DNA of 64,000 nucleotides, taken from positions 19,184,039-19,248,038 of the forward strand of contig JAVTVX010000019.1 in NCBI GenBank assembly GCA_033439265.1, given 5' to 3'. A model generated the notes under the pieces. That model searched no databases. It had not been told where the DNA came from and worked only from the letters and a program-made list of their open reading frames with translations. Both the position numbers and the translations under genes were made by a program. Origin of the DNA: Dillenia suffruticosa. Its lineage: Eukaryota; Streptophyta; Magnoliopsida; Dilleniales; Dilleniaceae. Below are positions 3,179 through 46,075 of this stretch, one piece after another (within the stretch, counting starts at the first letter, position 1; every line of letters starts with the position of its first letter).

Positions 3179-4075
<897 letters not shown>

Positions 4076-20870: not shown

Positions 20871-21131
20871 TTAATTTTTTAGCATAGATAAAATCACTCG
20901 GTCGATCATGATGGGACATGACCATTAATAATCTACCCCCACCGCCACCACCACAACCACTACCATACTTCTTGACCTGAGAAGTCGATCCTTATCTTCA
21001 TTCACAAATTATCCGTATCATTTTCATTCTCAAAACCCCTACAATGTGCAAAACAAAGTCCAACTGTTTACTTCTTGACCTGAGAAGTCAATCCTTGTCT
21101 CCATGAGGATTGGTATTTAAAATCATCATCT

Positions 21132-24100
21132 ATGAATAACGAGAAGGTAGAGCCAACAGCTTTCTTGATACATTCAAAGATGACCTGCTTTAATGTGCTC
21201 TGCGTAGCTAATAAGATGCAAATTCTTTTACTCTTGTTATGCTTTCTCAACACCTCCATAATTCTCCACAAAACTAAGACAAAGCCATTAGCCGTGGCCA
21301 CGCAGCACACAAACAACAGTGATCGCGACGCATTGCTGGCCTTTAAAAAGAGCATTGTTTATGATCCTCTAGGGGTGATGAGATCTTGGAATAATTCTAT
21401 GCACTTCTGCAAGTGGGAGGGTGTGACATGCTCTCGCCGACATGTAAGGGCCACTGTTTTGAATTTGACTTCTCGTGGTTTGGGTGGTTTGTTGCCTCCT
21501 CATGTAGGGAACTTAAGCTTCCTTAAGATACTCTCCCTACTCAACAATAGTTTCCACGGCCAAATCCCTCCTGAACTTGGTCATTTGCGTAGGCTAAACA
21601 ATTTGGTTCTACGTAACAATTCCTTTGAAGGGAATATTCCTGGTACTCTATCTCATTGCACCAACCTAATAAGGCTACGATTGTCCTATAACAAGTTAAT
21701 AGGCAAAATTCCGAAGGAGCTTGGCCAGTTGCGAAAACTCACATTCCTCGATTTCTATGCAAACAATTTAACAGGAGGCATAAGTCCCTTTCTGGGAAAC
21801 CTCACATCACTTGAAACCCTATCTCTAGGAGTAAACAAATTGGAAGGGACAATTCCAGAGGCTTTGGGTCGTCTGCGAAATTTAAAAGCTCTTGGACTCG
21901 GTTCCAACGGGCTTCATGGTATGATCCCTACATCTATATATAACTTATCTTCCATTACTATATTTTCCATTGACCGAAATCATTTTCACGGCACACTTCC
22001 CTCCAACATTGGCCTTACACTTCCTAATCTTGAATGGTTTCAAATCCAACAGAACCACTTCAGTGGTCCCCTTCCAATCTCATTATCCAATGCAACTCAT
22101 CTTGAGCTTCTTGAATTGGGATACAGCAATTTTACCGGTGAAATTCTGGTTGATTTTGGAGGCCTACAAAATTTGAGAAAAGTTGTTATTGACAATACTG
22201 GCTTAGGAGGAGATCCTGGTGGTATGAACTTCATCAAATCTCTTTCAAATTGTACTAAGTTGGAAATTTTAGAGGTACAAACCAACCAACTAGCTGGGAT
22301 ATTGCCAAAAGAAATCGGCAATCTCTCTTCCACATTGACTTATTTAGACCTTGGAGAAAATGAAATATCCGAATTTATCCCTCCAGAGATAGGTAACCTT
22401 GTCAAACTTGGTGTGTTGTCTTTGGAAATTAATCATATGGTTGGCCCAATACCGAAAGAGATTGGTTTGCTTCAGAGTTTACAAATTTTGTCTCTCGTGT
22501 CCAACAAACTTTCTGGGAACATTCCAACTTCTTTAGGAAACTTGTCATTACTCAACAAACTCTCTTTATGGGACAATGCATTACAAGGAAACATACCATC
22601 AGAGTTGGGTGACTGTGGAGCTTTGATGCTAATGGATCTTTCGTTGAATAATCTTAGCGGGTCCATACCAAAACAAATATTTGGTATTCTAGCACTATCA
22701 ATTCTTTTAGATTTGTCTGGAAATCAACTTGTTGGCACCCTACCCTTTGAGATTGGTAATCTGGGTCACTTGGCTGGGTTGGATTTATCGAAGAATCATT
22801 TATCAGGTGAGCTTCCAAGCACCTTGGGTAGTTGCACCAGCCTTGTAGATTTACAATTATCAGAGAACTTATTCAGTGGAGCTATTCCTGAGTCATTAAG
22901 TTCTTTGAGAGGCATACAGAACCTTGACCTTTCTCGTAACAATCTATCTGGTCACATTCCAAAATTTCTGGAGTCATTTCTCCTAGACAGTCTAAATTTA
23001 TCTTTCAATAACTTTGAAGGCGAGGTTCCACTGAAGGGTGTTTTCCTAAACCCAAGTGCAGTATCTTTGGTTGGAAATTATAGGCTCTGCGGTGGAATAA
23101 GCAAACTGCATCTGCCTAAATGTAATTCTACCAGTGGCTCAAAAAAAAGAAAGGTGTTGCATGGTCACATGGTGCTAATATTGATTGGAGGTGTAATATT
23201 CATTGCATTTGTGGTGTCATCTTTCCTGCTTTGTCAATATAGAAGACGAGCAAAGCTAAAAAAGCAACCATCATCTATGGCACTTTTAGGCGAAAGTCTT
23301 TTGCAAGTGTCATATAGAAGTCTCCTAAAGGCAACAAATGGCTTCTCCTTGGAAAATATGGTTGGCAGGGGAAGTTTTGGCACTGTATACAGAGGAATAC
23401 TCGGGGAATCTAATACTTCTGTTGCAATCAAAGTCTTCAACCTTCAATGCCACGGAGCTTTCAAAAGTTTCCTAGCTGAGTGTGAAGCCATGAGAAACAT
23501 TAGGCATCGAAATCTTGTAAAGATCATAACTGCTTGCTCGAGCATTGATTTGCAGGGCAATGATTTCAAGGCTCTGGTTTTTGAGTTTGTGACCAATGGA
23601 AGTTTAGAGAATTGGCTGCATCCTTCTCCACAAACAGATGGCAGTCATATTGAGATTCGGCATCTAAACATTCTGCAAAGAGTCAATGTTGCAATTGATA
23701 TAGCTTGTGCGCTCAGTTATCTTCATCATCAAAGTGAGAGTCCGATTGTCCATTGTGATCTAAAGCCAAGCAACATTCTTTTGGACGATGACATGACTGC
23801 ACGTGTTGCGGATTTTGGATTGGCAAGGTTTCTACTTCCAAAAGGAAATGATGGCCAAAGTAGCTCGATTGGATTAAGGGGGACAATCGGTTATGCTCCT
23901 CCAGGTAAGTGTACCTCTCAATCCTTAAGTTTGGTTTTTTAAAGTTTGCTTTCTTTTGAATCATTCTGAGAAATTAAAGGGTAATCTACATGCTGTCCAG
24001 GAAAAGGGTACCCACATAGATATATAAACGAAATCATTTCATTCATTGAACCATTGCGCTATATAATTAGTCTCATGCACCGCAACATGTACAAGTACAC

Positions 24101-24551
24101 CAAAATCATTGCTCTATCACTTATTTTGGTTTGGAGAAGTACTTTTTTTTTTCTTTAGATATATTATATTTCTAGTGAAAATTGTCAAACAGAGTACGGT
24201 CTAGGAAGTGAGATCACAATAGCGGGGGACATTTACAGCTATGGGATCTTACTGTTGGAGATGATCACAGCCAAACGACCCACTGACACCATGTTTTCTG
24301 ATGGATTTAATCTTCACAAATTCGCCATGATGGCATTGCCAAACAGGATCATAGATGTTGTGGATCCTATCCTTGTGCATAGCACTAGCAATAGCTGCAA
24401 AATGGAGTGCGTGGTCTCCTTAATCAAGATTGGAATCGGTTGCTCTATGGACTCCCCTCAAGAGAGAATGACAATCAGCAATGTTCTAAAAGAGTTGCAT
24501 TTTGTCCGGGACATGCTTCTTCGAGATGCAAAGTTCACACATCTAAAATGA
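21132..24551 (+). CDS. LRR-XII receptor-like kinase (EFR/Xa21/At3g47570 type), non-RD
   Basis: Plasma-membrane receptor kinase, about 1043 residues from two exons (21132-23904 and 24193-24551, GT-AG intron, phase 1, frame preserved). An internal Met at residue 29 (21216) precedes a strong hydrophobic signal and may be the true start. Order: LRRNT with FCKWEGVTC, about 20 extracellular LRRs (roughly 100-650), a CysCys cap (LCGG...PKC), TM at about 680-702, then the kinase. Kinase features are the glycine loop GRGSFGTVYRG from 745, VAIK lysine 767, HCDLKPSN at 874-881 (Cys before Asp, hence non-RD), DFG at 894-896 and GTIGYAPPEYG created by splicing. Non-RD kinases of this subfamily usually sense microbial patterns. 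The ligand is unknown. The conserved intron in the activation-segment region fits the family. No lesion is seen. Confidence 0.95.
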
Positions 24552-24927: not shown

Positions 24928-24958
24928 CTAGGAGGTGTACACCGCACGATGCGCGGTG
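24928..24958 (-). other. Helitron 3'-terminus signature (hairpin plus CTAG)
   Basis: On the minus strand, a 19-base hairpin (CACCGC...GCGGTG arms, complement of 24940-24958, one internal mismatch) is followed 8 bases later by CTAG and then a T in flanking DNA. Hairpin, short spacer, CTRR and a flanking T is the defining 3' end of plant Helitrons. Confidence 0.65.
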
Positions 24959-25593
24959 TAGAGTGTTGATTTTGGTTATAAAATTAGGGGAGTTGTCCAG
25001 TATGGTTTAGTGAAATTTGTATTAATTTTACTTTTGTGATATATATAATTTTTTTTATAATACCAAAAAAATAAAAACAAAAAAAGACTGAGAGAAATAT
25101 ATTTTAAATATATTCATTTAACATTAAATATATTATATTAAAATAAAAAAATACATTAGAATGAAAATAAAAGTATATTATATTTAAACATATTTAGATT
25201 TAAGTTGTATATTTAAATACGTTTGGATTTAAATGTATATATTAAAAATATAGTGTGCGTGGTGTGTGTGCTACATATTAAAAGTTATATGTTAACTCAA
25301 AAAAAATGTTTAAAACAAAATTAAATATGTTTTTTTTTATTTTTTTCCTATTTTTTTATCGGTTTTAATTTTTTAAAATAGTTCTATACTATACAAGACG
25401 ATAACGAAATTCTGCGCTTCGCTGACCCACAATGTGATTCTGCATTTTGGAGAGCCAGAAGATGATCTACGTTTGGCAGAACCACATGTGATATATTTGA
25501 ATATGTATATTTAGATATTTGAGATTGGATTGAAATATTAAATTGAAATAGAATGTGATAATATCAAATAATAAACCAAAACTAAATTATTAT

Positions 25594-28500
25594 TTAACTA
25601 TAGAGTTTTTAAATTAGAGTTTTAATTTTTAAAGAATCTTTATCTATCTAAAACTTTTACTTTAGTAGTTTTAATTTTTGTCTGTATCTAACTAAAAGTT
25701 TTAAAAATTAGAGTTTCAAATAACATGTTAATCGTAGAATAAAATATAAAAATATTAAAAATAAACCAAAACTAAAACCTATAAATACGAATATGCAATT
25801 TAAAATTTTATAAGAATAAAAATATCTAAATATTTAATTTAAATCTATAGATATTTATTTAAAATTAAATAAATTAGATATTAAAAAAATCATATCCGGA
25901 AAAAAATTATCTGTGTAATGTTATGTTTAAACGATATAATTGTTTTTTAGTGTTTGTATATTCCTTGTTTTTTTTATTTTTTTGGTCTTTTTTTTCTATA
26001 TAGAGAGAGGCGTGACAAAAGGTAGCTTGTAGTGTACGTGGTGTGCGTGCTATATATTAAAAATTATATATTTAATCTGTTAATTTTTATTCTTATACAG
26101 TTTCAAATGATAAAAATATTTATAAGTCTATTTAAATAAAAATATCAATAATATTGTTTTGGTTTATCATTTAATATTTTCACATTTCATGTTATAATTT
26201 CATATTTTATTTAAATAAATATCAAATATCCAAATAAATTATTTTTAATATTATAAAAAATTGAATATTGGAATAATAAGGTGGTATGCAGAACCACAAG
26301 GTTCTGGTACGCAGAACGATATGGTTATGCTATTATTCCCAACCAAAAAGCAAAACCTTTTTAATCTTCCAAAATATTATTATTATTTTTAAAATACCAG
26401 AAAACATTTTTTTTTATTTTGTTTATGATTGTGATGGTGTAAATTTTTGAGAAATCACATCTAAATGATCTAAAAAAGTTTAAATTCGATTTGTTGCTAT
26501 AAAATAAATATAGTTTATCTTTTTTATAAATATTAAATCTTTTCAAAAAAAGTGAAATATTATTAAAAACCATAATATGGTAGATATTTTTATAATTATA
26601 ATTTTTATAGATTGCATTTTTAGGTTAGCTAATATTTAAATATTTATCTAATATTAAACATTCTAAATTAAAATGAAAAAGACATGGACATAACATGTAT
26701 AATATTAATATTGGTGTGAAATAAAAAATACATAAATATTAATCTGAAATCATAATATTTAATAATTTAAGTCTAAAACATGCATAAATATTAATATTTA
26801 ATTTAAGGTTTGTAAAATATAAAAATACAAAAAATAATTTAGTTATTTAAAGATTTCATATAATAAATCAAATATTCTTTTGGTAGGCATTACATATGAA
26901 TTCGTTTCAATCAATTTATATATAAGTTATCTAATTTTATAAATTTTACCTATAGTTAACTATGGAGTTTTTAAATTATAGTTTTGATCTTTTAAAGAAT
27001 TATTGTCTATCTAAAATTTTTACTCTAATAGTTTTAATTTTTGTCTAACTAAAAGTTTTTAAAATTGGAATTTCAAATAAAATGTTAATCGTAATATAAA
27101 ATATAAAAATATTAATAAATAAAACAAAACTAAAACTTATAAATATAAATATGCAATTTAAAATTTTATAAGAATAAAAATATTTAAATATTTAATTTAA
27201 ATATGTAGATATTTATTTAAAATTAAATAAATTAGATATTAAATAAATTATATCTGAAAAAAAAATTATCTATGTAATGTTATGCAATGTTATGTCTAAA
27301 CGACATAATTGTTTTTGGGTGCTTATATATTCATTTTTTTTTATTTTTCGGGTCTTTCTTTCTATATAGAGGGAGGCGTGACAAAATGTAGCTTGTAGTG
27401 TGCATGGCGTGCATGCTCTATATTAAAAATTATATATTTAATTTGTTAATTTTTATTCTTATAAATTTTAAATGATAAAAATATTTATACGTTTATTTAA
27501 ATAAAAATATTAATAATGTTGGTTTTGTTCATCATTTAATATTTTCATATTTCATATTATAATTTTATATTTTATTTAAATAAATATCAAATATCTAAAT
27601 AAATTATTTTTAATATTAAAAAAATAGAATATTTGAATAACAAGGTGGTACGCAGAACGACATTGTTCAGCTATGCAGAGCCACATGAGTCTGCTATGTA
27701 GAGTCTCATGGTTCTGCTATGCAGAACGATATGGTTCTGCTATACAGAATTTCATGATTCTGCTATTTTTTAATCTCTCAAAATATTATTATTATTTTTA
27801 AAACACCCGAAAATATTTTTCTTTATTTTGTTTAGAGTTGTGATAATGTAATTTTTTTAGAAACCACATTTAAATGATTTAAAAAAATTTAAATTTGATT
27901 TGTTTCTATAAAATAAATATAGTTTTTCTTTTGTATATATATTAAATCTTTTCATAAAGAGTGAAATATTATTAAAAACCATAATTTGGTAGATATTTTT
28001 ATAATTATAATATTTATAGATTGTATTTTTAGGTTAGATAATATTTAAATATTTATCTAACATTAAACATCCTAAATTTAAATGAAAAAAATATGGACAT
28101 AACATGTGTAACATTAATATCGGTATGAAATAAAAAATACATAAATATTAATTTGAAATTATAATATTTAATAATTTAAATCAAAAAATCAATAAATATT
28201 AATATTTAATTTAAGGTTTGTAAAATATAAAAAATATAAAAAATAATTTAGTTATTTAAAGATTTCATACAATAAATCAAATATTCTTTTGGTAGGCATT
28301 AAATATGAGTTTATACGGATCAATTTATATATAAATTATGTAATTTTATAAGTTTTGTCTATAGTTAACTATAGAGTTTTTAAATTAGAATTTTGATCTT
28401 TTAAAGAATTATTGTCGATTTAAAATGTTTACTCTAATAGTTTTTAATTTTTGTCTAACTAAAATTTTTAAAAATTGGAGTTTCAAATAAAATGTTAAAT

Positions 28501-28600
28501 ATAATATAAAATATAAAATTATTAATAAATAAAATAAAACTAAAGCTTATAAATATGAATATGCAATTTAAAATTTTATAAGAATAAAATATTAAATTAT
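25594..28600. repeat. Tandem repeat, about 1.4-kb units (two plus partial third)
   Basis: The marker 'ttaacta.rgagtttttaaatta' occurs at 25594, 26956 and 28365, so periods are 1362 and 1409 bp. Matching order continues through 'atgcaatttaaaattttataagaataaaa', 'aggcgtgacaaaa.gtagcttgtagtgt' and the GTTCTGC/GCAGAAC-bearing segments. Units are diverged mainly by small indels. No coding frame is conserved between copies. Confidence 0.85.
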
Positions 28601-28613
28601 CTGAGTAGTTTTG

Positions 28614-30120
28614 CAATTCGCACGTAGTTCTATCAATTTTAGTGCCTATCTGTATTTTTTTAATTTAAAAATATCTGTAAAATATTTTTTACTTAATATA
28701 TTTAAAATTATAATTTTTCTAATATCATAACATTAAATCAAAACATTTTTATATGTGTACTAAAAATTTTGCATAACATTAAATGAAAATATCAATCGTC
28801 ACCATATTTGGAATTTTTTGAAAATTTAAAAAAAATCATTATTAATATATTTATAATTATCATCTTGAAATTGAATTTGTATTTTTTCATAATAATATGT
28901 TTTAGTTAATAAAAAATAAGAAAATCTATTTTCTAGTTATGTTACATGGCAGAACTACATTGTTCTTCTACATGGCATAACTATATTGTTCTGCTACTAA
29001 ACTTCTGCTATGCAGCCTCACCTTGTAGTTCTGCTACATAGCAGAACTTTGTAGTTCTGCTATATAGCTACACGCCTTGGTTGACGAAAATTAAATAATT
29101 GAGAGAAATAGTAAATTTGTATTAAAAGCAGTAAACTTACCAATATTAATAATTTTTAAAATTATAATATTTTAATTTGGATACTAAATAAAAGTTTTAT
29201 AATTTTTTCCATCTTTTAATAATTTTTCAAATTTACTTTTTTTTTATATATTTTTGCTTTGTTTCTTTTTTTATTTTTTTGCTAATTGTAAAACTTTTTA
29301 ATATATAAATTTTAGTATTAACATTTTAATATATTAAATATTAATATTTCAGGTGTTAGAATAAATTAAAATTTATAAAATTTTAAATTGAATATTAAAT
29401 TACATTGTTAGTTCTACACTTCACACATAATTCTGTTAATTTTAGTGTCTATCTGTATTTTTTTAATATAAAAATATCTGTTAAATATTTTTTGCTTAGT
29501 ATTTTTAAAATTATAATTTTTCTAATATCATAACATTAAATCAAAGTATTTTTATATATACACTACAAATTTTATATAATATTAAAATAAAAATATCGAC
29601 CACCACCATAGTTGGAATTTTTTGAAAATTTAAAAAAAATCATGATTAATATATTTATAATTACTATCTTGAAATTGAATTTATATTTCTTCATAACAAT
29701 TTGTTTTAGTTAAAAAAAAAAAGAAAATTTATTTTCTAGTTCTGCTACATAGCAGAACTTCATAGTTCTGCTACATAGCAGAACTTCATAGTTTTGCTAT
29801 ATAGCACTGCACGCCTTGGTTGACGAAAATTAAATAATTGAGAGAGATAGTAAATTTGCATAAAAGCAGTCAACTTACCAATATTAATAATTTTTAAAAT
29901 CATAATATTTTAATTTGGATACCAAATAAAAGTTTTATAATTTTTGCCGTCTTTTAATAATTTTTCAAATTTACCTTTTTTTATATATTTTTGCTTTCTT
30001 TTTTTTTTTTTTGCTAATTGTAAAACTTTTTAATATATAAATTTTAGTATTAACATTTTAATATATTAAATATTAATATTTCATATTTTTGAATAAAATA
30101 TTTCATGTTTTAAATATTTA
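28614..30120. repeat. Tandem duplication, about 0.8-kb units (two copies)
   Basis: The marker 'ctatctgtatttttttaat' lies at 28646 and 29449 (period 803). The copies agree through 'ggaattttttgaaaatttaaaaaaaatcat', the palindromic GTTCTGC segment and 'acgccttggttgacgaaaat' to the poly-T tail. Confidence 0.85.
29028..29784. repeat. Perfect 20-bp palindromes GTTCTGCTACATAGCAGAAC
   Basis: Three exact copies at 29028-29047, 29739-29758 and 29765-29784. Each has 9-bp arms that are perfect reverse complements around a CA centre. They sit in the word-rich part of each 0.8-kb unit and look like the founder form of the minisatellite at 31297. Confidence 0.9.
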
Positions 30121-31296
30121 ATTTTTACAATATTAATATTTATGCAGAACCGCCAAACAGTTCTGTATTATACAGAACTTGGTAGTTCTATATAGAGTAA
30201 AACTATGTAGTTCTGTACTATACACAACCACCAAGCAGCTCTGCATTATACAGAACCACCAAAGTTTGAACCACATGGAATGAGAAAAGAAAAATGTAAA
30301 AATACTAAATAATAAACCAAAACCACATTATTTAATTTATTAAAATATTTTTATAATTTCAAATATTTTTAATTTAATATTTCAATAATTTTAATTGTTA
30401 CGTTATTATAATATTATAGCAAATTTATTATGTATCATCCATTTCGAATACTCTTAATATTTTTAGCATATTCATTATTTTTAATAAAAGTATTAGGAGT
30501 TCCGTGCTATACAGATCCACCAAATATTTCTGCTCTAAGCAAAACCACCAAGTACTGCGCTTTGAAGGCCTATGGTAATCCTGTATTACGCAGAACTTCC
30601 AAGTAGCTATGCACTATGTAGAACCATCAAACTTCAAATCACAAGGAATGAGATATATCATTTATTTCGAATATTTTTTATATTTTTTTGTAATTATATA
30701 TTTTTTTAATAAAAGTATTAGTAGTTCTATACTATGCAAAATCACAAAATAGTTCTGTATTATGTAAAATCACCAAACTTTGAATCACATGGAATGAACA
30801 AAAGCAAAATGTAAAAATATTAAATAATAAAGCAAGGTATGCTATTCAATTCGTTAAAATAGTTTCAATAGTAGAATATCTAAGTATTAATATTTAGAAA
30901 TTTTTGAATCTTAAATTTCAAAATATTATATTTTAGTATTATAAAATTATAATTTTATTCGTATTATAATACTATAGTATTTTTGCTATATGCAAAAATA
31001 TTTTGTATATAATAAAAGAATCTATATAATATCTTTTCGTATCTTTATTATAATTGGTTTTGTTTTAAAAATATCTTAAAATATTTTTCATTTAATATTT
31101 TCATAATTATAATTTTTGCATTAATATAATATTATAGTAAACTTATTATACGTCATTAATTTCAAATATTTTTTATATTAAGCGTAATCATTTATTTTTA
31201 ATAAAAATATCGATAGTTCTGTTTTATGTAAAATCACCAAGTAGTTCCGCGTTTTGTAGAACTACGGTATTTCTATGCCATGCAAAACAACGAAAT

Positions 31297-31838
31297 CCTG
31301 CTACATAGCGGAACTATATAGTTCTGCTACATAACGGAACTAATTATATAGTTCTGCTACATAGCGGAACTATGTAGGTAGTTCTGCTACATAGCGGAAC
31401 TAACTATGTAGTTCTGCTACATAGCGGAACTAACTATGTAGTTCTGCTACATAGTGGAACTATGTAGGTAGCCTTACTACATAGCGGAACTATATAGTTC
31501 TGCTACATAGCGGAACTATGTAGGTAGTTCTGCTACATAGCGAAACTAACTATTTAGTTCTACTACATAGCGAAACTATGTAGGTAGTTCTGCTACATAG
31601 CGGAACTAACTATGTAGTTCTATTACATAGCGGAACTATGTAGTTCTGCTACTACATAACGGAACTATGTAGGTAGTTCTGCTACATAGCGGAACTAACC
31701 ATGTAGTTCTGCTACATAGCGGAACTAACCATGTAGTTCTGCTGCATAGCGGAACTATGTAGGTAGTTCTGCTACATAGCGGAACTAACTATGTAGTTCT
31801 GCTACATAGCGGAACTATATAGTTCTGCTACATAGCGG
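31297..31838. repeat. Minisatellite of about 19 self-complementary 26-30 bp units
   Basis: The core GTTCTGCTACATAGCGGAAC (20 bp, palindromic except for one T:C pair) alternates with spacers taactatgta, tatgtaggta (30-bp period) or tatata (26-bp period). Cores begin near 31321, 31351, 31381, 31411, 31441, 31497, 31527, 31587, 31676, 31706, 31766 and 31796, with variant units between. The spacers complement the core centre (ctatgtag/ctacatag), so alternative hairpins centred on the spacer are also possible. Confidence 0.95.
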
Positions 31839-32189
31839 TATTTGATAAATTTTTTTTAGGGGCTAAATTTTGTGAAAATTTAGGATGACAACCCAGTCGG
31901 CTCATATAATAAGAATTTTTTTAATTTTTTGTGATCTTAATTTTGCCTTTATTTTTTATTTTTCAATTTAAGTTTGTATATGAATAGAAATAAATTTTTA
32001 ATCATATGAAATTTTAATTGGTTTTTTAAATTTTCTCAAATGTCATTTGTAAAAAATCTGAAAGTTTGTCAAAAAAAATTTTTCTTTTATTTTAAATATC
32101 ATTTATTTCAAATATTTTTGATATTTTTAATATAATTATAAAATTTTTTATTCTAAAAATAAAAAGAAAGATTTGAAAAAAATGATATA

Positions 32190-32430
32190 AATCCTGCGTA
32201 GCGCAGAACCATATCATTCTGCATTGGGCAGAACCATGGTTCTGCACTGTTGTAGAACCACATGGTTTTGTCTAATGCAGAGCGATACGGTTCTGTACTG
32301 CGCAGAACCACATGGTTATGCATTTTGTGGTTCTGCGCTATATCAAGTCCAATTTTGATAGTTTTGCATAATTGCATGTGCACTTGTAGTTTTGCATCAA
32401 TAGTTCTGCACTTGTAGTCCTGCATTTATA
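32190..32430. repeat. Cluster of GTTCTGC/GCAGAAC words in both orientations
   Basis: At least eight words or one-base variants occur within 240 bp, including the perfect 18-bp palindrome GCAGAACCATGGTTCTGC at 32228-32245. Spacing is irregular, unlike the array at 31297. Confidence 0.8.
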
Positions 32431-33059
32431 TTAACAACACATAACCTAACACTTGAAAAAAATATTTTTTTAATATAAAGATACTTTCCGATATTTTTTT
32501 ATTTAATATTTTATAATTATAATTTTTATAGTATTGTAATATTATAGCATTTTTACTGTACATGTGATTCAAAACATAAGATAATAAACATAAATATTAA
32601 ACCCTAAACTAAATATTATTTATCTCCAAAAAAACAGAGTAGCTCTGTAATTTACAGAACCACCTTTACTCTTCTAAATAAAACATATATTTAAATATAA
32701 TATTATACAAATATTTTTTTCCATTTTAATATAATATATTTAATACATAACAAATTTAATAACCATCAGTGGAGCATCAAATTGAATCAACCAAATAATA
32801 TGACCTTGTATCAAAAGGGTGAGAGTAAAAAGAAAAGATTATAAACTAACATGCAGGGAGAAACTGATTCTATACAAGAACAATGTACAAAATACTATTA
32901 TATAAACTATATGAACATAAGATATGGAACAAATTCAATATAAATCTCTGTAACTATCTAGAATCCCACAACCATGTTTCAAATACCACACATTTACAAT
33001 AACCTAAAACTCATACAGTGGTGGGAATTGGGCTGTACAATGGCTATATAATTTTCTTG

Positions 33060-35250
33060 TCTCCCAAGCATGACACATGAACATATTTAACTACAAAACC
33101 ACAGAACTACACTTTTTTTTAACATACCTAATTACAGAACTATAGAACTACTTTTTTTTAACATAACTATTTTTTTTTGAAAACATAGCCGACAGCATAT
33201 CCAACAATAGAATTACAAAAGTATTTTTTTTTTAACATACCAAACTATATAACTATTATTTTTTAACAGGACAACTTTTTTTTTAAAGGCGGTACAAAAC
33301 TCATTTTTTTTTAACATACATAGCTGCAGAACTTATTTTTTCTTGTAGAACTACTTTTGAACTATTTTTTTTAGTAGAACTATTTTTTTAATGGGATTAT
33401 AGAACTATTTTTTTTGGTAGCAGAACTCCTTTTTTTTTTTAACATACTTAACTATAGAACTATTTTTTTTAGTAGACTACTTTTTTTTAATGGCATAACA
33501 GAACAATTTTTTTAACAGAACTACTTTAATTTTTTTTAACATACCTAATAACAGAACTTTTTTTTTAACATACCTAATGGAAGAACTATTTTTTTTTAGC
33601 AAAACTACTTTCTTTTAACAGAACAATGTAGTTCTGCACGGTGCAAAATCACATGATTCTTTTAACAGAACTATTCTGAATTACTTTTTTTAGCAGAACA
33701 ATGCAGTTCTGTGGGACGCAGAACCATGTTGATCTGCACCGGGCAGAACCACATGGTTTTTTTAGCAAAAGTACTTTTGAATAATTTTTTTTAGCAGAAC
33801 TATTTTCTTTTTTTTAATGGCATTACATAACTACTTTTTTTTTTGTAAAACTACATTTTTTTTAACGTACCTAATTACAGAACAACTTTTTTTTAGTAGA
33901 TAATTTTTTTAACAGTATCACAGAATCCCTTTTTTTTCGTATTAGTCTTACTTTTTTTTTTGAATATATCTAATCACAAAACCACAGAACAACATTTTTT
34001 TTTAACATATCTAACTACAGAACAATAGAACTACTTTTTTTTAACAGAACTATTTTTTTTGAAAATATAGCCGACAGCATATCCAACAACAGAACTATAA
34101 AAGTATTTTTTTAATATACCAAACTACATAACTATTCTTTTTTAACAGAACAACTTTTTTTAAAGGCGGTACAAAACTCCTTTTTATTAATATACCTAGC
34201 TACAGAACTTATTTTTTCTTGCAAAACTACTTTTGAACTATTTTTTTAGTAGAACTATTTTTTTTAATGGGATTACAGAACTATTTTTTTTTTGTAGCAG
34301 GACTCTTTTTTTTTTCGAACGTACTTAACTACAGAACTATTTTTTTTTAGTAGACTACTTTTTTTTTAATGGCATAACAGAACCATTTTTTTAGCAGAAC
34401 TACTTTAATTTTTTTTTAACATACCTAACCACATAACTTTTTTTTTTGAACATACCTAATGGAAGAACTATTTTTTTTTAGCAAAACTACTTTTTTTTAG
34501 CAGAACAATGTAGTTCTGCACGATGCAAAACCATGTCGTTTTGTGCACTACAGAACCACATGGTTCTTTTAGTATAACTATTTTGAACTTTTTTTTAGCA
34601 GAACAATTTTTTTTTAGTAGCATTACAGAACTATTTTTTTTTTTGTAGAATTACCCTTGTTTTTAAACATACCAAACTACAGAACTATTTTTTTTTAGTA
34701 AATTACTTTTTTTTTTTAACGGCATTATAGAACTACTTTTTTTTCATATCAGACCTACTTTTTTTGCAACATATCTAACTACAAAACTACAAAACTACTC
34801 CTTTTTTTGAACATTCAAAACTACAGAGCCACAGAACTATATTTTTTAAGAGAACTATTTTTTTTTTGAAAATATAGCCGACAATATATCTAACTACAGA
34901 ACTATAGAAGCATTTTTTTTAACGTACCAAACTACATAACTATTCTTTTTTAACAGAACCACCTTTTTTTTAATGGCGTTACAAAACTATTTTTCTTGAA
35001 CATACCTAACTATAGAACTTATTTTTTCTTACAGAACTACTTTTGAACAATTTTTTTTGTAGATCTAATTTTTTTAGTAGCATTATAGAACTACATTTTT
35101 TTGTAGCAGAACTACTTTTTTTTTTTGGAACATTCCTAACTAAAGATCTTTTTTTTTTTTTTAGCAAATCTACTTTTTTTAGCAGAACCATGTAGTTTTG
35201 TGTGGCGCAGAACCATGTCGTTCTACGCCAGGCAGAACCAAATCCATCAA
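33060..35250. repeat. Poly-T/'acagaacta' array with about 0.85-kb higher-order period
   Basis: Short units of 'aacagaacta' plus a run of 6-10 T repeat for over 2 kb. A higher-order unit is marked by 'atagccgaca.atat' at 33188, 34070 and 34877 (periods 882 and 807), each followed in the same order by 'taccaaactayataactatt' and 'gcggtacaaaact' or 'ggcgttacaaaact'. On the minus strand it reads as TAGTTCTGT/C words separated by A-runs. No coding frame survives. Confidence 0.9.
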
Positions 35251-35499
35251 TACAAAATTCCAGACTTTAGACGCTATTATTAAAAAAAAAATGTACTTCT
35301 GCAACTTCTTATAGTTGTTCTGTAAAATCAATAGCTTTGAAACATCAATTGTAAATCCACTTATATATTATAACACACAAAAATCCACGACATATGTAGA
35401 AACTAAACGATAACGGTGGCCTGTATAAAAAACAATATAAAGAAAAACAATACAAAGAGCAGCCAAACAAGCTTTTAACAAAGCAACCAAACAAACTAT

Positions 35500-35870
35500 G
35501 GAGTTCTGCAGACCTAAGACTCACAATTGCAGAACAACCGAGTGAAGTTATTACAGAATTGAAAGTGCTATTGCAGAACTACCCTAAACCCAGAACTACG
35601 AAGCAGAGTTATTGCAGAAATGAGTTTTTACAGAACTATTGCAGAATCATTAAAGTGCTATTACAGAAAGAACCACCAGCAGAACTACAGAACTGGGCTA
35701 TTACAGAACCAACAAAGTGCAATTGCAGAACCACGGAGCGGAGCTATCGCAGAACTGAGCCATTGCGGAAAGAACGATCAGCAAAATCACCAAAGTGCTA
35801 TTATAGAACTACCAAATACAGAACTACCTACCAAGTGCAAAAAAATCAAGACATAGTTAGTTGTAGTCCA
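35500..35870. repeat. Degenerate 'ctatt.cagaac' repeat
   Basis: The motifs 'gctattacagaac', 'tattgcagaact' and 'ccaaagtgctatta' recur about every 30-40 bp. The 184-codon open frame that starts at 35559 is a translation of this repeat followed by poly-A-rich sequence, and I do not treat it as a gene. Confidence 0.7.
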
Positions 35871-36329
35871 ATAAAAGTAGGAGCAGAAGCCAAACGCAAA
35901 AAAAAAAAAAAAAAAAATCACAAAACAAATGAAAAACAAACAATAAAAATCAAAACCAAAGAAATACCAAAACCCAACCAAGCAAGCGAATCAAAATCTC
36001 ACAGTAAATCCTCACACACCACTCTCCAGAAGCTGAAAAAAAAATCAGCAATAAACATGAAGAGTAGCAAAACAATACAAACCCAAACAAAACTTTACAA
36101 ATACAAACGCTAAGAACAGAGAAAATCGCCTCCATACCTCATCACCATTAGGCACACCACTCTTCTCAACAGAAACTAAAAAAACAACATTTTTGAATTA
36201 AAAACAAATACAAAAAACAACAAGTAAAATAACCGTCGAACAAACTAAATGTTTAGAAGCAAAGACAAAGACAAACCCTCACAAGAGAGAGGAATCACTC
36301 TCATAATCAGTATCTGAACCTAAACGTCT

Positions 36330-36400
36330 CCATTTGCCCACTTAGAGAGTGAGAGAGAGAGAGAGCAAGCGCATGTGTCCAACTTTTATAGAGAGATAAA
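36330..36400 (-). promoter_or_regulatory. Possible minus-strand core promoter inside the island
   Basis: On the minus strand, 'tctctctataaaagttgg' (36380-36397) supplies a TATA box, followed by a CT-repeat leader and an open segment through 36330-36300 that reads KWRRLGSDTDYESDSS before a GTGAGG donor-like site. A further open minus-strand segment with a GTATGG donor lies at about 36134-36176. No coding gene could be assembled. It may be the remains of a captured or ancestral element gene. Confidence 0.25.
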
Positions 36401-36992
36401 GAGAGAGACAGAGAGAGAGAGCGGAAAGCACAGAGGAATGGCTTGCATACACTATAATCATTAAGATCATGGCACACTTCCCTCTATCTAAATCGTCAAT
36501 AAAAAAGGAGAACATCTAATCGTGCAGAATGCAATGAGTACTCAAGGGATGGCCTCCATTGACCTCTTTTTTTTCAAAAGTACAAAGAGAAGGTAATTTT
36601 ACAAAAATCTCCAAATCCCCTAATCGTTACACAAGAACAAAAAAAATGAAACCATTCTGAAATATAAAACAGGGACAAAAAGGTAAATCATGACAAAGTC
36701 CTCCCAACCACCCCAGATATGTTTTCAGTGAAATCAGTCACAAAATCTACTCCATTAATGTTTCTGAAATGACAAGAGAGAAAGAAAGAAAAAGAAAGAA
36801 AAAAATACGTTAATATTTCTGAAATGAAATGAAATGAAAAGAAAAGAAAAAAAAAAGAGAGGAAAAAAAAAAAGAAAACAACGGGCCACATCAGCTCCAC
36901 CTCACCAACGACCAATCACCTTGCACCAATTGGAGGACGACGAAACCCAGATGGCAAGGGGTCTTTCACGCTTATATCTATATTGTTAATGA

Positions 36993-41620: not shown

Positions 41621-42440
41621 AAATCCGTATTTATGGTAGAAATCTTAAACCAATCACACAATTCTATTTCTCATTTGATTAGGTTTATCTCCACTTTAAC
41701 AATTACCATGCTTTTGTGGCCTTTTCTGAGTATTCAATTTTTAGACTCCAATTTTATGATATTATCAAAAATATACATTTATTTTCTTGGCCAGATCCAA
41801 ATCTGATTTAAAAAAATATAATAAATCCTTAAAAAAAAATTAAATATTAAAACTAATTTCGATAAATCTCCAACTATTTTCTGTCAAATAGCTATGCGAC
41901 CGACTACAATGTCCTAGTTTATGCACTTTAACCGTCCAAAATGTGCTAGGTCAAGGTCCAATTTAGTATCATCACAAATTAAGAATTAATTTTATTTCTG
42001 ACCTAAAGAAGAATTTTGCCCATTTCCTGAAAAGGGTTTGTCTCTCAATCATCAAATAGCAATGGAAGATGAAGAAAATGAAATTATGTAGCCAAGGGTT
42101 CCAGACAGCAACAAAATGAAAACTTTTGAAGCATCCTACGATTCGGCCGATGTGAATCTACGAAGGCAATATGAATATAGTGTTAGAGAGATATCATAAA
42201 AATCAAAACCTCTCTGCTGGGTCCTTCGCATTAATCGAAACAACAATACTAATATCGAAAAATATGAACATGTGTAAATTAATGTGCGAATTTCGGATCC
42301 CCGAATGGGAGGAGAGTTTCCGATTCGGGGATCTGTATTCATTTTCTTATGAGAATAAATCCATGTTCGAAGGCAAACTTGGTAAAAAGCGCATTGTTTA
42401 ATCGCACTTCCACCATAGGTCCTTCGGTATCTTCTGTATG

Positions 42441-42945: not shown

Positions 42946-43925
42946 TACCGGGAAAGAAGGAAAGCACACAAAACACCAGAGCGGAGAAACCTTAGGTGGA
43001 GAGAGAGATTACACCCCTAGTCCTCTCCAAACCCATACAGTCTTCCCACATGAGGCGACGCAGAGACGGAGGAGGGTCGCTTAGCTCATTCAGGCCATCT
43101 GCACTTTGCTGACCCAGCTGAGCCAAATGGTCAGCACACGCATTGGCTTCCCTAAGGACATGCTTGACGACGCTTATGTTCAGAGAATACAGTAACTTTT
43201 TACATTCTTGGAGAATGAAGGAGAGAGGATGATCATGATCCGTTTGCTTGAGAAGAAGGCCAAACAGGACTGCAGAGTCCAACTCTACCTCCAGAGGATT
43301 GAGGCCGTGCCGTTTGGCAAGATGAAGGCCTTCTCTCAGACCCCAGAGCTCAATGAGAAGAACCTCAGACCTACCAATATTGAGAGAGAAACCTGTAATC
43401 CAATCACCATTGCTGTTTCTGATGATGCCTCCTGCACTAGCTTTCCCAGAGGATTGAGTTACTGCACCGTCTGTATTAAGCTTGAAAGGAGCCTGTGTGA
43501 GGAGGATCCCACTGAATCCTTTTAATAGCTGGCCTCTCTCCTACACTGGAAGCCCTCCAAGATCTCAAAGCTTCTTTCGATAAATTGGCTGCATAGAGAG
43601 CCAGCTCCTGTGGGGACTTGCTGTTCTTTTGAAAGACTTGTAAGCATCTTTCCTTCCAAAGAGACCAGGCTGTATGGATGAAGAGGGAATTTGAGTGATT
43701 CTGCTGACAATTCGCTCCCAAATAAAGCCACTTGCACAAGCTACCTGTCCAAAAATCTGCATTCATGGTTCGGCTAGGGAGCACAATCTCCCAAGTCAAT
43801 CTAGCCTTAGTGCAGTCCACATGGAGAACTGATTCAGCCGCAAGTATACAGAGGGGGCAGGAGGCATTGTCAGAGAACTTGCGCCTACATCTTTTCAAAT
43901 TTGTCATGAGCTTTTCGTGACGGGA
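42946..43925 (-). pseudogene. 5'-truncated LINE: zf-RVT and RNase H end
   Basis: The minus strand from 43925 reads a zinc-binding reverse-transcriptase C-terminal domain (SDNASCPLC, AAESVLHV, then a WSLWKERC block). After the linker IQWDPPHTGSF and a one-base frameshift near 43464-43470, it reads an RNase H domain: KLNTDGAV, GGIIRNSNGDW, LIELWGLREGL, EVELDSAV, REANACADHLAQLG. All four RNase H acidic positions are present. The frame stops near 42995 and is followed by 'ttcccggtacaaaaa' and a (TA)n/(TG)n tail, the usual LINE 3' end. Reverse transcriptase core and ORF1 are missing. Confidence 0.8.
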
Positions 43926-46075
43926 TAACTAAAGGAAAACTTTGATTTTTTCAGAACATTTAGCCTTCCAGATCTAATTCCAGTTCTCCTCTTTTTGCCT
44001 GTACTGTTGGTCATGATGGACATCACACATATATATTTACACGAGAGAGTATCGATTTTAACTTACGTCACCACACTTTTTGTGAAAAAAAAAAAAAGAA
44101 AGAAAGAAAAAAGAAGGGGTGCTTACGTGTCTTTTTCAGGTGTTGTCCGCGCTATTAAGAGATCAGAATTCCTTAACAAACCAACATCACCTTAGTTTTC
44201 TCTAAATCATGTAAACAAGTTAGGGGTATTTAACTCAAATCTATTTGGTTTATTTGGATTAATAAAATAAAAATATAGATTTAAGAATAAAAATCTCAAA
44301 ATCAGGGTTTATAAAACTCGAGTAAAAATATAAATTTTATGAAATTCATATTAAAGTTTTTTATTTCGAATCCAATTTTGATTCTCAAATACGAATCAAA
44401 CATCTCCTCAATCTTTATAAGGTTTCTTAACTCCACGAAATATAATGTTTTTGTTACACAAAGCAGAATTTGTTCAACCTAAGATGAGTAATTTATACAA
44501 TTTTTTTTTTTCAAGTTCTTTAGCCATATTTAAACAGCACTATGAGTTTATTTTAATAGCACTCTATGTAATATTGTGCCATTTTGAATAGCATTTTGTA
44601 TGATACAATGCCATTCACCAATAGGATGAAATGCGATTACTATAAAACAAAGTGTAGGCATAATCCTGTATGATACTAGATATGCCAAAGATTTTGATTT
44701 CGAATCGAAATCGAACAAAAACCAGTTCCTTGTAAAAGTAAATTGAGATTGTGAAATTAATTTTGAGATGTTTTTAGAATTGAGATTTTTTTAATCCATT
44801 CATTTGATTCTAATTTCTAATTTTTAGAATCAAAAGCAAAATTGAAATATTAGAAAACCATAGAATCAAAATACCCGACCATGAAAAGCTATGAAAACAT
44901 AAATACTGAAATATATATATATTGCATATAAAATAACAAAAAAAAAATATAAAAAATCAAAACCAAATTAAATTAAAACCAAAACTATTAATTTTAGAAC
45001 TAGAACTTAAACCGTCGTCTTTTGCCTACCGGACTAAAACCGTCTAATTTGACCGGACTAAAACCGTCTAATTTGGATGATTGAATTCAAAATCTTGAAT
45101 ATGTATAAATAGTATCAATTGTTGTAATTGTCAACTATGAATATTGCGATCAATAATTTCAATAAGTAAATTTACTATAACTATAATAAAAACTAAAATT
45201 TTTACTCTCTGTTTAAAACAAAAGAAAAACAAATTTAATTCATTTAAAATTGGGAAGTTTGATTTGATGATCATTAAATTGAGTCTGGATTTGATGGGGT
45301 TCAGCCTCATCAAAACCGATGCCAATCAAAATTAGGGATTTGGCATTGGGATGTTAATCAAATGCATCCTCAATCACGTATGAGGTTGCAGCTTTGGGAT
45401 GATGTTGCCAATGGAGATGGGGATCGGGTTCGTTCAGGGGTGTTGGATTGAAAGGGAAAGAATGACTCCACAATACACAACAATCGGCTTATTTTTTATT
45501 TTTTTGGTATCTTGGATCGGTTACTATCTAATATTTAGAGTTTTATTCTGATTAATTTATATCGATAATTGTAGGGTTTATTTTTAAGGTGGGTCTCCCA
45601 ATATCATTTTTTTCGTATCTTTTTTTATATCCAGAAAAAATCAAACTCCTAATCTGATTAAAAAATGAAAATATCCATTCTACTTATGTCAATTATACGC
45701 ACGTGTATCTTTACATCTCCACCGGTATTGAAGTCCTTTAAAATATTTTCCATATGAATATAAAGAAAAGGAAAAATAATATTAAATAAAAGATGCCCCA
45801 TAAAAAAATAAATATTTTTTTCAACCCTAATAAAAATTATAGTTATTAATTTCTTGTAGTTGCCAGTGGTTTAGGGAGTAAGCTTCTAGTCCAAGCCAAA
45901 CCTGAGTTCACCGAACGACCAAATGCCTAAAATTACGTTTCCTCCCGAATGCCAAAAATTACCTTTCTTTCTCATCGGTCGCACTCGTCGTTATTGCTAC
46001 GCCTTTTCGAAAATCCCAGATCTACCATTAATTCGCAAGGAAACCATTCTCTCTCTCTCTCTCTAAATCTCTGCG
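43926..46075. other. AT-rich upstream region of the golgin gene
   Basis: No gene is supported. 44216-44412 has MITE-like composition ending in '...tacgaatcaaacatctcc', a pattern also seen near 11940-12010 and 45345-45375, but clear terminal repeats were not found. Confidence 0.35.
45500..45690 (-). repeat. SINE-like repeat, minus strand
   Basis: Reverse complement of the body found at 4640-4815: 'tattgggagacccacct', 'gattaatcagaataaaactcta' in the same order. Confidence 0.45.

What the first reader, a model, noticed from the sequence alone, without database searches (positions are those of the whole stretch)
24928..36992. A 12-kb gene-free island organised around one palindromic word
Seen: from about 27.6 to 35.9 kb the only recurring GC-containing sequence in very AT-rich DNA is GTTCTGC/GCAGAAC and one-base variants. 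It appears in four different repeat architectures: 1.4-kb units, 0.8-kb units, a 26-30 bp minisatellite and a poly-T higher-order repeat. Inference: either the word was spread by repeated local amplification inside one mobile element, or it is selected as a protein-binding or hairpin-forming site. I know of no named repeat family with this organisation.
Basis: partly seen in the sequence, partly recalled or inferred. Interest (0 to 1): 0.87.

Follow-up and report, generated by a model that had tools for sequence, protein, structure and literature searches.

The report
Giant gene-free Helitron of motif arrays
The gene-free stretch is one 12-kb rolling-circle transposon (a Helitron) in what looks like a plant genome; it carries no recognisable genes and is packed with copies of a short DNA word that also fills non-coding DNA of its roughly 30-kb gene-carrying relatives, which suggests, but does not prove, that the word is a recognition site by which the family controls its own copies.

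Summary
In detail: GTTCTGC/GCAGAAC occurs 60 times in the island (0.4 expected), 45 times outside the 31.3-kb array (0.6 expected). The island is one transposon. Paralogous empty sites show that window 24928-36989 (12,062 bp, minus strand) was inserted at A|T without duplication. The 3' end is a Helitron end (hairpin, CTAG|T). The genome has 214 matches to the 5' end and 123 to the 3' end. Of 71 paired copies, 50 lack a listed RepHel hit (median 14.2 kb) and 21 hold one (median 31.9 kb). The word is the top 7-mer in the four elements tested, one of them RepHel-bearing (145 against about 4 expected).

The RepHel lineage also carries a B3-like ORF with signs of purifying selection. I read the word as a family-specific protein-binding site amplified by tandem duplication, as in Arabidopsis VANDAL/VANC. 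Binding was not tested. A within-array conservation test supports constraint on the word; a between-copy test does not. Low-GC repeat-bloc Helitrons are known (rice Mothra), so this is a new variant of a known kind.

The parts
24928..36989 (-). Whole element: Helitron without recognisable genes, 12,062 bp
   Evidence: Paralogous empty sites on contig C16, gap-free at the junction; both ends match dispersed terminus families
24928..24960 (-). 3' terminus: hairpin with 9-bp stem (24938-24960), then the 10-nt tail CACCTCCTAG, followed by host T
   Evidence: DNA fold -9.2 kcal/mol, z -4.84; 123 genome matches within 3 mismatches, control 0
36850..36989 (-). 5' terminus, starting TTAACAATATAGATATAAGCGTGAAAGACCCC
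   Evidence: 42 scored matches: the window itself, 40 at 87-96% and one at 80%; 214 genome matches to a 30-mer of it within 3 mismatches, control 0; host A on its 5' side
25591..28600 (.). 1.36-kb repeat units (about 16-19% G+C) with word clusters near 26288-26311 and 27652-27766; a further word at 25476 lies just outside
   Evidence: Self-BLAST 86%; composition; word positions
28569..30100 (.). Two 0.81-kb units, each with a cluster of inverted words (28936-29068, 29737-29806)
   Evidence: Self-BLAST 82%; tandem repeats; fold of 29735-29786 -18.9 kcal/mol, z -9.25
31298..31838 (.). 30-bp minisatellite, 18.5 copies, 15 exact words, all in one orientation, with GCGGAAC (13 copies) as the other half
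32201..32425 (.). Cluster of words in both orientations, period about 25-28 bp
33078..35243 (.). Poly-T higher-order repeat (0.88-kb unit, about 2.4 copies), CAGAACTA-T(n) half-sites mostly in one orientation; homologous block in RepHel-bearing relatives A2 and M2
35503..35826 (.). Word cluster in A-rich DNA near the 5' end

Best explanation
SHOWN: the island is one Helitron insertion of 12,062 bp without recognisable genes (window 24928-36989, minus strand). It belongs to a family of mostly about 14-kb copies without a RepHel hit and 21-44-kb RepHel-bearing copies that share its ends; in the copies I read in full, both kinds share its word. SHOWN: their non-coding DNA is built of tandem repeats of different periods that have one site in common, RCAGAACYA (GTTCTGC on the other strand). 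INFERRED (likely): the site is a cis-acting recognition site kept because a protein binds it in clusters; tandem duplication raises site number cheaply, so the arrays are amplified and selected at once. INFERRED (weaker): the binder is encoded by the family, perhaps the B3-like protein downstream of RepHel, and binding keeps the copies accessible (anti-silencing, as VANC does on VANDAL elements) or helps the RepHel/RPA machinery act on them in trans. My own estimates: Helitron identity about 0.97; word is a functional site of the family about 0.6; binder is element-encoded about 0.45; B3-like protein is the binder about 0.3; anti-silencing as the effect about 0.3. That gene-free copies are mobilised by the RepHel-bearing ones is inferred from shared ends.
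For: Empty site: the joined flanks match paralogous loci on C16; 9 places align over query 1-2 to 359-360 of 361 nt; the two aligned at base level read through CATGTATTAAATA|T with no gap at the junction. Termini: 3' hairpin + CTAG|T (T follows CTAG in 8 of 8 loci); 214 and 123 genome matches, controls 0. RepHel-bearing partner: 1,254-aa ORF with Helitron_like_N and PIF1, best solved relative Helraiser 7lcc, E 1.7e-217. Shared word: W 60, N1 78, N2 88, N3b 58, M2 86, A2 145 against 0.4-3.8 expected; top 7-mer in the 4 tested. Genome: 1458 inverted word pairs against 3 for the reversed control. The 50 sites listed (contig C1 only) form 5 clusters: 3 lie inside paired elements as far as listed, 1 lies 12.7-17.9 kb downstream of a scored 5' end, 1 lies 4.5 kb from a RepHel hit. 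All 11 tandem arrays that pass the filter (at least 5 copies, period 15 or more, score 150 or more) in the six elements contain the word; word columns are better conserved than other columns in 11 of 11, cyclic-shift p 0.005. B3-like ORF: 66 of the first 73 copies (59% identity or more) have a RepHel hit upstream on the same strand within 30 kb (chance about 0.3% each), and 55 of the 60 best RepHel hits have it downstream. Median dN/dS falls to 0.47, 0.39 and 0.21 at dS 0.15-0.3, 0.3-0.6 and above 0.6. Of 50 paired copies without a RepHel hit, 31 span 13-15 kb: they have not shrunk to small size.
Against: No binding, methylation or small-RNA data. With words chosen in a third element to avoid ascertainment bias, word positions differ about as often as others (0.077; flanks 0.084-0.092; other 0.066-0.073; word below flank in 14 of 21 comparisons, which are not independent). 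Within-array ranks are individually weak (0.12-0.60), and the arrays are partly homologous. B3 assignment is below Pfam's cut-off (21.2 bits against 30.1 for A1; 11 of 19 copies match at E<=0.1), and the PDB hit fell from E 1e-4 to 0.16 once the host gene was left out of the profile. The structure model is poor (pLDDT 47.7). In about 6 kb beside each of three divergent B3 copies I found 0, 3 and 1 words (0.35, 0.30, 0.45 expected). 1408 of 1458 inverted pairs were not placed.
Confidence: 0.55

Rival explanations
1. Passive amplification only: one ancestral micro-array inside a Helitron was duplicated, converted and rearranged; the word is simply what survived and has no function.
For: Several architectures share short homologous segments; arrays of the window element and of A1/M2 are about 65-73% alike; the between-copy test shows no constraint on the word; low-GC repeat blocs are known in another Helitron (Mothra).
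Against: The same 7-mer leads in AT-rich gene-free copies and in A2, whose arrays are G+C-rich; each of the 11 arrays that pass the filter contains it and its columns are the better conserved ones; flanks beyond the 9-mer differ among 10 sub-regions.
Confidence: 0.28
2. Hairpin model: in the single-stranded rolling-circle intermediate the inverted pairs fold into hairpins that pause, protect or terminate replication.
For: Inverted pairs fold well (29735-29786, -18.9 kcal/mol, z -9.25); 1458 inverted pairs in the genome against 3 for the control; the element has a 3' hairpin.
Against: Only 9 close inverted pairs for 60 words in this element and 14 for 145 in A2; the poly-T block is 37:3 one-stranded; the 30-bp array pairs GTTCTGC with GCGGAAC, which breaks a Watson-Crick pair.
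Confidence: 0.12
3. The word is a host transcription-factor site captured and multiplied by the Helitron, giving host-controlled expression, as reported for PHE1 sites spread by Arabidopsis Helitrons.
For: Precedent seen in a passage of PMC13317346; in A2 and M2 the word clusters outside the RepHel and B3-like ORFs.
Against: The word is not clearly enriched in the window outside the element (7 against 4.7 expected); no host factor was identified or searched for; about 60 sites in a gene-free copy is more than a promoter needs.
Confidence: 0.15
4. An ordinary satellite or minisatellite that has nothing to do with a transposon.
For: The island is made of tandem repeats.
Against: Exact insertion boundaries and empty sites, dispersed full-length relatives and a Helitron end.
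Confidence: 0.01

Closest known systems
DHH_Mothra, non-autonomous Helitron of rice (PMC4683698; passages and sections 6 and 14 read)
   Same: Low-GC, gene-free Helitron made of tandem-repeat blocs that vary in number and order between copies; related gene-bearing elements share its termini; its authors propose that the repeat blocs improved transposition.
   Different: Mothra sub-types are 1.25-2.7 kb; here copies without a RepHel hit have a median of 14.2 kb. The passages and sections I read mention no short word shared across blocs and no B3 domain. Sequence relatedness was not tested.
VANDAL/VANC anti-silencing system of Arabidopsis (PMC5735166 passages read; PMC10398659 abstract and outline read)
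   Same: [quoted passage not shown] an element-encoded protein binds it; repeats change fast between copies.
   Different: VANDALs are Mutator-like DNA transposons (passage of PMC13317346). Here the element is a Helitron, the motif is RCAGAACYA, and binding and loss of methylation are untested.
Helitrons and Helentrons with satellite repeats (DINE-1, PMC4067079; oyster Helentrons, PMC7492417; search listing and start of abstract only)
   Same: Rolling-circle elements reported with repeats inside, as far as the listing shows.
   Different: Animal elements; I compared neither sequence nor size nor repeat content.
Helraiser (bat Helitron; PDB 7lcc; PMC4778049, search listing and start of abstract only)
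   Same: The RepHel of A1 aligns with Helraiser over residues 391-1229, E 1.7e-217.
   Different: Element of about 30 kb or more with extra ORFs and word arrays.

Membership tests
Helitron superfamily | 3' end CTRR preceded by a hairpin | tested here: met
   CTAG; 9-bp stem ending 10 nt before the terminus, z -4.84
Helitron superfamily | Insertion between A and T, no target-site duplication | tested here: met
   Empty sites A|T with no gap at the junction; T after CTAG in 8 of 8 loci
Helitron superfamily | No terminal inverted repeats | tested here: met
   By reading: the two 30-nt ends (CTAGGAGGTGTACACC... and TTAACAATATAG...) are not alike; no program was run for this
Helitron superfamily | Relatives with the same ends encode RepHel (Rep + PIF1 helicase) | tested here: met
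   14 of 40 scored 3' ends have a RepHel hit upstream within 20 kb; 21 of 71 paired copies contain one; domains
Helitron superfamily | 5' TC in a RepHel-bearing partner | tested here: met
   A2 starts TCAACAATATAG after A; another RepHel-bearing copy, M2, starts TT
Helitron superfamily | 5' TC in this copy | tested here: not met
   This copy starts TT, as do 12 of the 14 copies I read; 1 reads TC, 1 GC. Dispersed TT copies suggest that this variant end moves within the family, so I keep the assignment on the other features and call it a variant 5' end
Mothra-like repeat-bloc Helitrons | Sequence homology to Mothra | not tested
VANC-type anti-silencing system | Short motif enriched in one family's non-coding DNA and amplified by tandem repeats | tested here: met
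   family-specificity genome-wide only sampled (50 of 1458 inverted pairs placed)
VANC-type anti-silencing system | Element-encoded protein binds the motif and removes methylation | not testable with these tools
   Needs DAP-seq/EMSA and methylomes
VANC-type anti-silencing system | Divergent sub-lineages carry diverged motifs | tested here: inconclusive
   Three divergent B3 loci: L068 3 words, L069 1, L067 none; the ACTTAYC array of L067 looks like a separate dispersed repeat
B3 DNA-binding domain (accessory ORF) | Score above Pfam's cut-off for PF02362 | tested here: not met
   21.2 bits for A1 against 30.1; 11 of 19 copies match at E<=0.1. Hence 'B3-like', on 33% identity to a host locus with PF02362 at 1.2e-13 and hhalign probability 96.7

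The most novel reading that the evidence does not exclude
A plant Helitron lineage has evolved its own sequence-specific control system, convergent with VANDAL/VANC: a B3-like protein kept under purifying selection reads a 9-bp word (RCAGAACYA) that the family multiplies in its non-coding DNA, and roughly 14-kb gene-free copies, such as the one in the window, persist as large arrays of that site which borrow the protein in trans.
Probability: 0.28. Interest if true: 0.85.

Novelty: new variant of a known kind. Interest (0 to 1): 0.6.

Why it matters
I know of no settled explanation for why a gene-free Helitron should keep kilobases of repeat-filled DNA instead of shrinking; the Mothra authors proposed that repeat blocs improved transposition. 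Here one word can be followed through copies of one family, with and without genes, next to a conserved candidate DNA-binding gene in the same element. That turns the question into a simple binding and methylation experiment and, if borne out, would extend the VANC type of selfish anti-silencing to rolling-circle transposons.

Tried and rejected
Pairwise conservation of words against 8-bp flanks looked strong (0.079 against 0.134 pooled, word below flank in 9 of 9 pairs), but choosing exact words in one of the two compared sequences hides part of the change. With words chosen in a third sequence the effect largely vanished. I rest nothing.

Lineage-specific words: the ACTTAYC array beside the divergent B3-like copy L067 looked like a different word for a different lineage. 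A genome scan found 202 such sites (control 6), 100 of them listed; of 73 listed places entered (near-duplicates and a few others left out), none lies within 30 kb of the 64 RepHel and 77 B3 marks entered. I dropped the idea.

A structure model of the B3-like exon (pLDDT 47.7) was too poor for a fold search, which I did not run. The PDB profile hit at 1e-4 came from a profile that included the host B3 locus; without it E = 0.16.

The empty sites and the start of homology in other copies favour 36989. The first alignments across the junction used loci in the wrong orientation and were redone. A1's 5' end was first misplaced because the fetched stretch began inside the element; one search places it at C11:17509670, and A2 was redrawn to its full length.

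Paper searches that added nothing used here: beyond Mothra and the giant-transposon review; beyond Helraiser.
Full report
OBSERVATION. The island 24928-36989 is very AT-rich (16-26% G+C in 9 of the 10 1-kb windows from 25 to 35 kb) and carries the word GTTCTGC/GCAGAAC 60 times against 0.36 expected by dinucleotide shuffling; without the 30-bp array it is 45 against 0.60. Outside the island the count is near chance (5 + 2 against 2.15 + 2.57). The four repeat architectures exist at the stated places. The core is better written RCAGAACYA: 67 copies in the island, 2 in the remaining 51.9 kb (69 against 1.9 expected for the whole window).

WHAT IT IS. The left edge reads, on the minus strand, a hairpin with a 9-bp stem followed by CACCTCCTAG, with T next (fold z -4.84). 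A search of the window's own genome (596 Mb, 37 contigs) gave dispersed copies of both ends: 40 scored left ends (86-93% apart from the window itself, 178 candidates) and 42 scored right ends (332 candidates). Pattern counts with up to 3 mismatches gave 214 matches to the 5' end and 123 to the 3' end, with none for the reversed patterns. The two host flanks, joined, match paralogous loci on contig C16; 9 places align over query 1-2 to 359-360 of 361 nt. The two aligned at base resolution, L065 and L066, read CATGTATTAAATA|TAAATCACAAA where the window reads CATGTATTAAATA-[12,062 bp]-TGAATCACAAA. There is no gap at the junction; the nearest indels are 21 bp of host sequence 13 bp to the left and a 4-bp one about 14 bp to the right. 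There is no duplication, and the target is A|T. This is a Helitron insertion, about 380 bp downstream of the last ORF of a receptor-kinase-like gene (21084-24551; only the first of the two ORFs was scanned).

THE FAMILY. 100 of 214 5' ends and 100 of 123 3' ends were listed to me; I paired them by strand and distance. Of 71 pairs, 21 contain one of the 64 RepHel hits entered and span 21-44 kb (median 31.9 kb); 50 contain none and span 5.4-49.8 kb (median 14.2 kb; 31 of 50 between 13 and 15 kb). Copies whose RepHel hit was not among those 64 would be miscounted as gene-free, and a 5' end whose own 3' end was not listed may be paired with a neighbour's. The window copy is 12.06 kb. In the RepHel-bearing copy A1 one open frame of 1,254 aa holds Helitron_like_N and PIF1, and its best solved relative is Helraiser. 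I call such copies autonomous by content only; activity was not tested. None of the 10 ORFs of the window copy that I scanned (of 19 listed) has a Pfam match. On contig C24 a 5' end directly follows a 3' end: the 3' pattern, T included, ends at 10174506 and AACAATATAG starts at 10174508, leaving one base for the first two bases of the new element. That fits an exact head-to-tail junction of a 13.6-kb and a 32.3-kb RepHel-bearing copy; the letters were not printed and the 3' match has one mismatch.

THE WORD IN THE FAMILY. In six full elements the word counts are 60, 78, 88, 58, 86 and 145, against 0.40, 0.78, 0.85, 0.62, 2.05 and 3.83 expected (W, N1, N2, N3b, M2, A2). GCAGAAC ranks first among over-represented 7-mers in each of the four so tested (window element without its array; A2, N2, N1). 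In A2 (32.6 kb, RepHel-bearing) the largest cluster, 38 words, includes a G+C-rich 51-bp array upstream of RepHel; 17 lie about 0.5 kb downstream of the B3-like ORF, others near both ends. Genome-wide there are 1458 inverted word pairs at 3-8 bp spacing, against 3 for the reversed pattern. The tool listed only the first 50 sites, all on C1, in 5 clusters. Three clusters lie, as far as listed, within paired Helitrons (5' ends at 945782, 10382849 and 11195687). One lies 12.7-17.9 kb downstream of the 5' end at 3526882, whose 3' end I did not find. One site lies 4.5 kb from a RepHel hit. The other 1408 pairs were not examined.

IS THE WORD SELECTED? For: across ten sub-regions with different periods and flanks the shared core is CAGAAC with R before and mostly YA after (anchored on GAAC, so those four letters are chosen, not found). 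All 11 tandem arrays that pass the filter (at least 5 copies, period 15 or more, score 150 or more; five of the six elements have such arrays, N2 has none) contain the word; word columns are more conserved than other columns in 11 of 11; shifting the word mask around each unit gives a combined p of 0.005 (0.0045 for the six arrays of N1 and A2). Several of these arrays are homologous, so the first p is too small. Against: a between-copy test with words chosen in a third element shows no clear constraint (0.077 in words; 0.084-0.092 in flanks; 0.066-0.073 elsewhere; word below flank in 14 of 21). Gene-free copies should decay neutrally after insertion, which weakens that test, but the result stands against the reading.

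A CANDIDATE BINDER. Downstream of RepHel the RepHel-bearing lineage has an ORF whose last part is B3-like: below Pfam's cut-off (21.2 bits against 30.1 for A1; 11 of 19 copies match at E<=0.1) but 33% identical to a host locus that scores 1.2e-13 for PF02362. Of 110 hits in the genome I used 92; among the first 73 (59% identity or more), 66 have a RepHel hit upstream on the same strand within 30 kb, where chance would give about 0.3% each; among all 92 it is 74. Of the 60 best RepHel hits, 55 have it downstream; of all 124 entered, 76. Median dN/dS is 0.90, 0.74, 0.47, 0.39 and 0.21 in rising dS bins (5, 39, 44, 99 and 23 pairs of 21 sequences, not independent; my own Nei-Gojobori script). That is what an element gene under selection, with neutral decay after insertion, should show. 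I take it for a resident gene of the lineage rather than a chance capture. An antisense ORF is also widespread in these copies, so B3 is not the only extra gene. The exons of the B3-like gene are not established, and a structure model was too poor to use.

HOW IT MOST LIKELY WORKS. The nearest worked-out parallel I found is VANDAL/VANC of Arabidopsis: a 9-bp motif multiplied by tandem repeats in non-coding DNA of one transposon family, bound by a protein that the element encodes and that lifts silencing (PMC5735166, passages; PMC10398659, abstract). Here the anatomy fits; binding and methylation are untested. Passive amplification is the main rival. Hairpins alone explain little, since most words have no close inverted partner and the poly-T block is almost one-stranded.

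KNOWN OR NEW. A gene-free low-GC Helitron with repeat blocs is known from rice (Mothra, 1.25-2.7 kb; PMC4683698). Helitrons up to 39 kb with captured fragments are reported from maize (PMC6431247, passages). New here, as far as my searches go, are the size of the gene-free class, one word running through the arrays of gene-free and RepHel-bearing members, and the B3-like resident gene. A full-text search for Helitron + 'B3 domain' + transpos counted 6 papers and listed 5; from titles and abstract starts none concerns a Helitron-encoded B3 protein. A search for VANC + transposon + anti-silencing + Helitron listed four papers that I judge by title and abstract start to be reviews; I read passages of one. 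Searches for Helitron with tandem repeats, minisatellite or internal repeats showed in their listings nothing with this organisation, but I did not open most of those papers. Absence from this library does not show that it is unpublished.

That the genome is a plant's is inferred from the receptor kinase, the B3 locus and the snoR145 match; the record is unnamed.

Noticed in passing
G000 C24:10174475-10174537 (places): The 3' end of a 13.6-kb copy directly precedes the 5' end of a 32.3-kb RepHel-bearing copy, which fits an exact head-to-tail junction; letters not printed, one mismatch in the 3' match.
   Followed up: partly
L004:1461-1640: A 3' end (CTAG) joined directly to a truncated 5' end of the same family (TATAGATATAAG...), another end-to-end junction.
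   Followed up: no
G000 C17:16753694-16754300 and C31:10995195-10997238: Repeated 5' ends in tandem (three within about 600 bp on C17; two about 1.9 kb apart on C31), as if the 5' end itself is duplicated.
   Followed up: partly
G000 C1:14254709, 14259250, 14263705: Three RepHel N-domain hits about 4.5 kb apart within one paired element of 34.6 kb.
   Followed up: no
L027/L028 (A1 element coordinates 21741-23144, minus strand): An antisense 468-aa ORF without Pfam match is carried by RepHel-bearing copies and belongs to a very large family (1050 first-look candidates); it may be an older transposon gene living in the Helitron.
   Followed up: partly
L067:3425-3766: ACTTAYC tandem arrays, apparently of an unrelated dispersed repeat, 202 pattern matches in the genome against 6 for the control.
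   Followed up: partly
window 42992-43928 and 51443-52093: Remnants of reverse-transcriptase genes (RVT_3 at 42992-43540, 6.7e-25; weak RVT_2 at 51443-52093, 7.9e-4, below cut-off), i.e. other transposons in the window.
   Followed up: no
window 42082-42231: H/ACA snoRNA snoR145 (Rfam RF02413, 84.2 bits), minus strand.
   Followed up: no
window 3179-4075: Uninterrupted 298-aa ORF of a glycosyl hydrolase family 18 (chitinase-like) protein.
   Followed up: no
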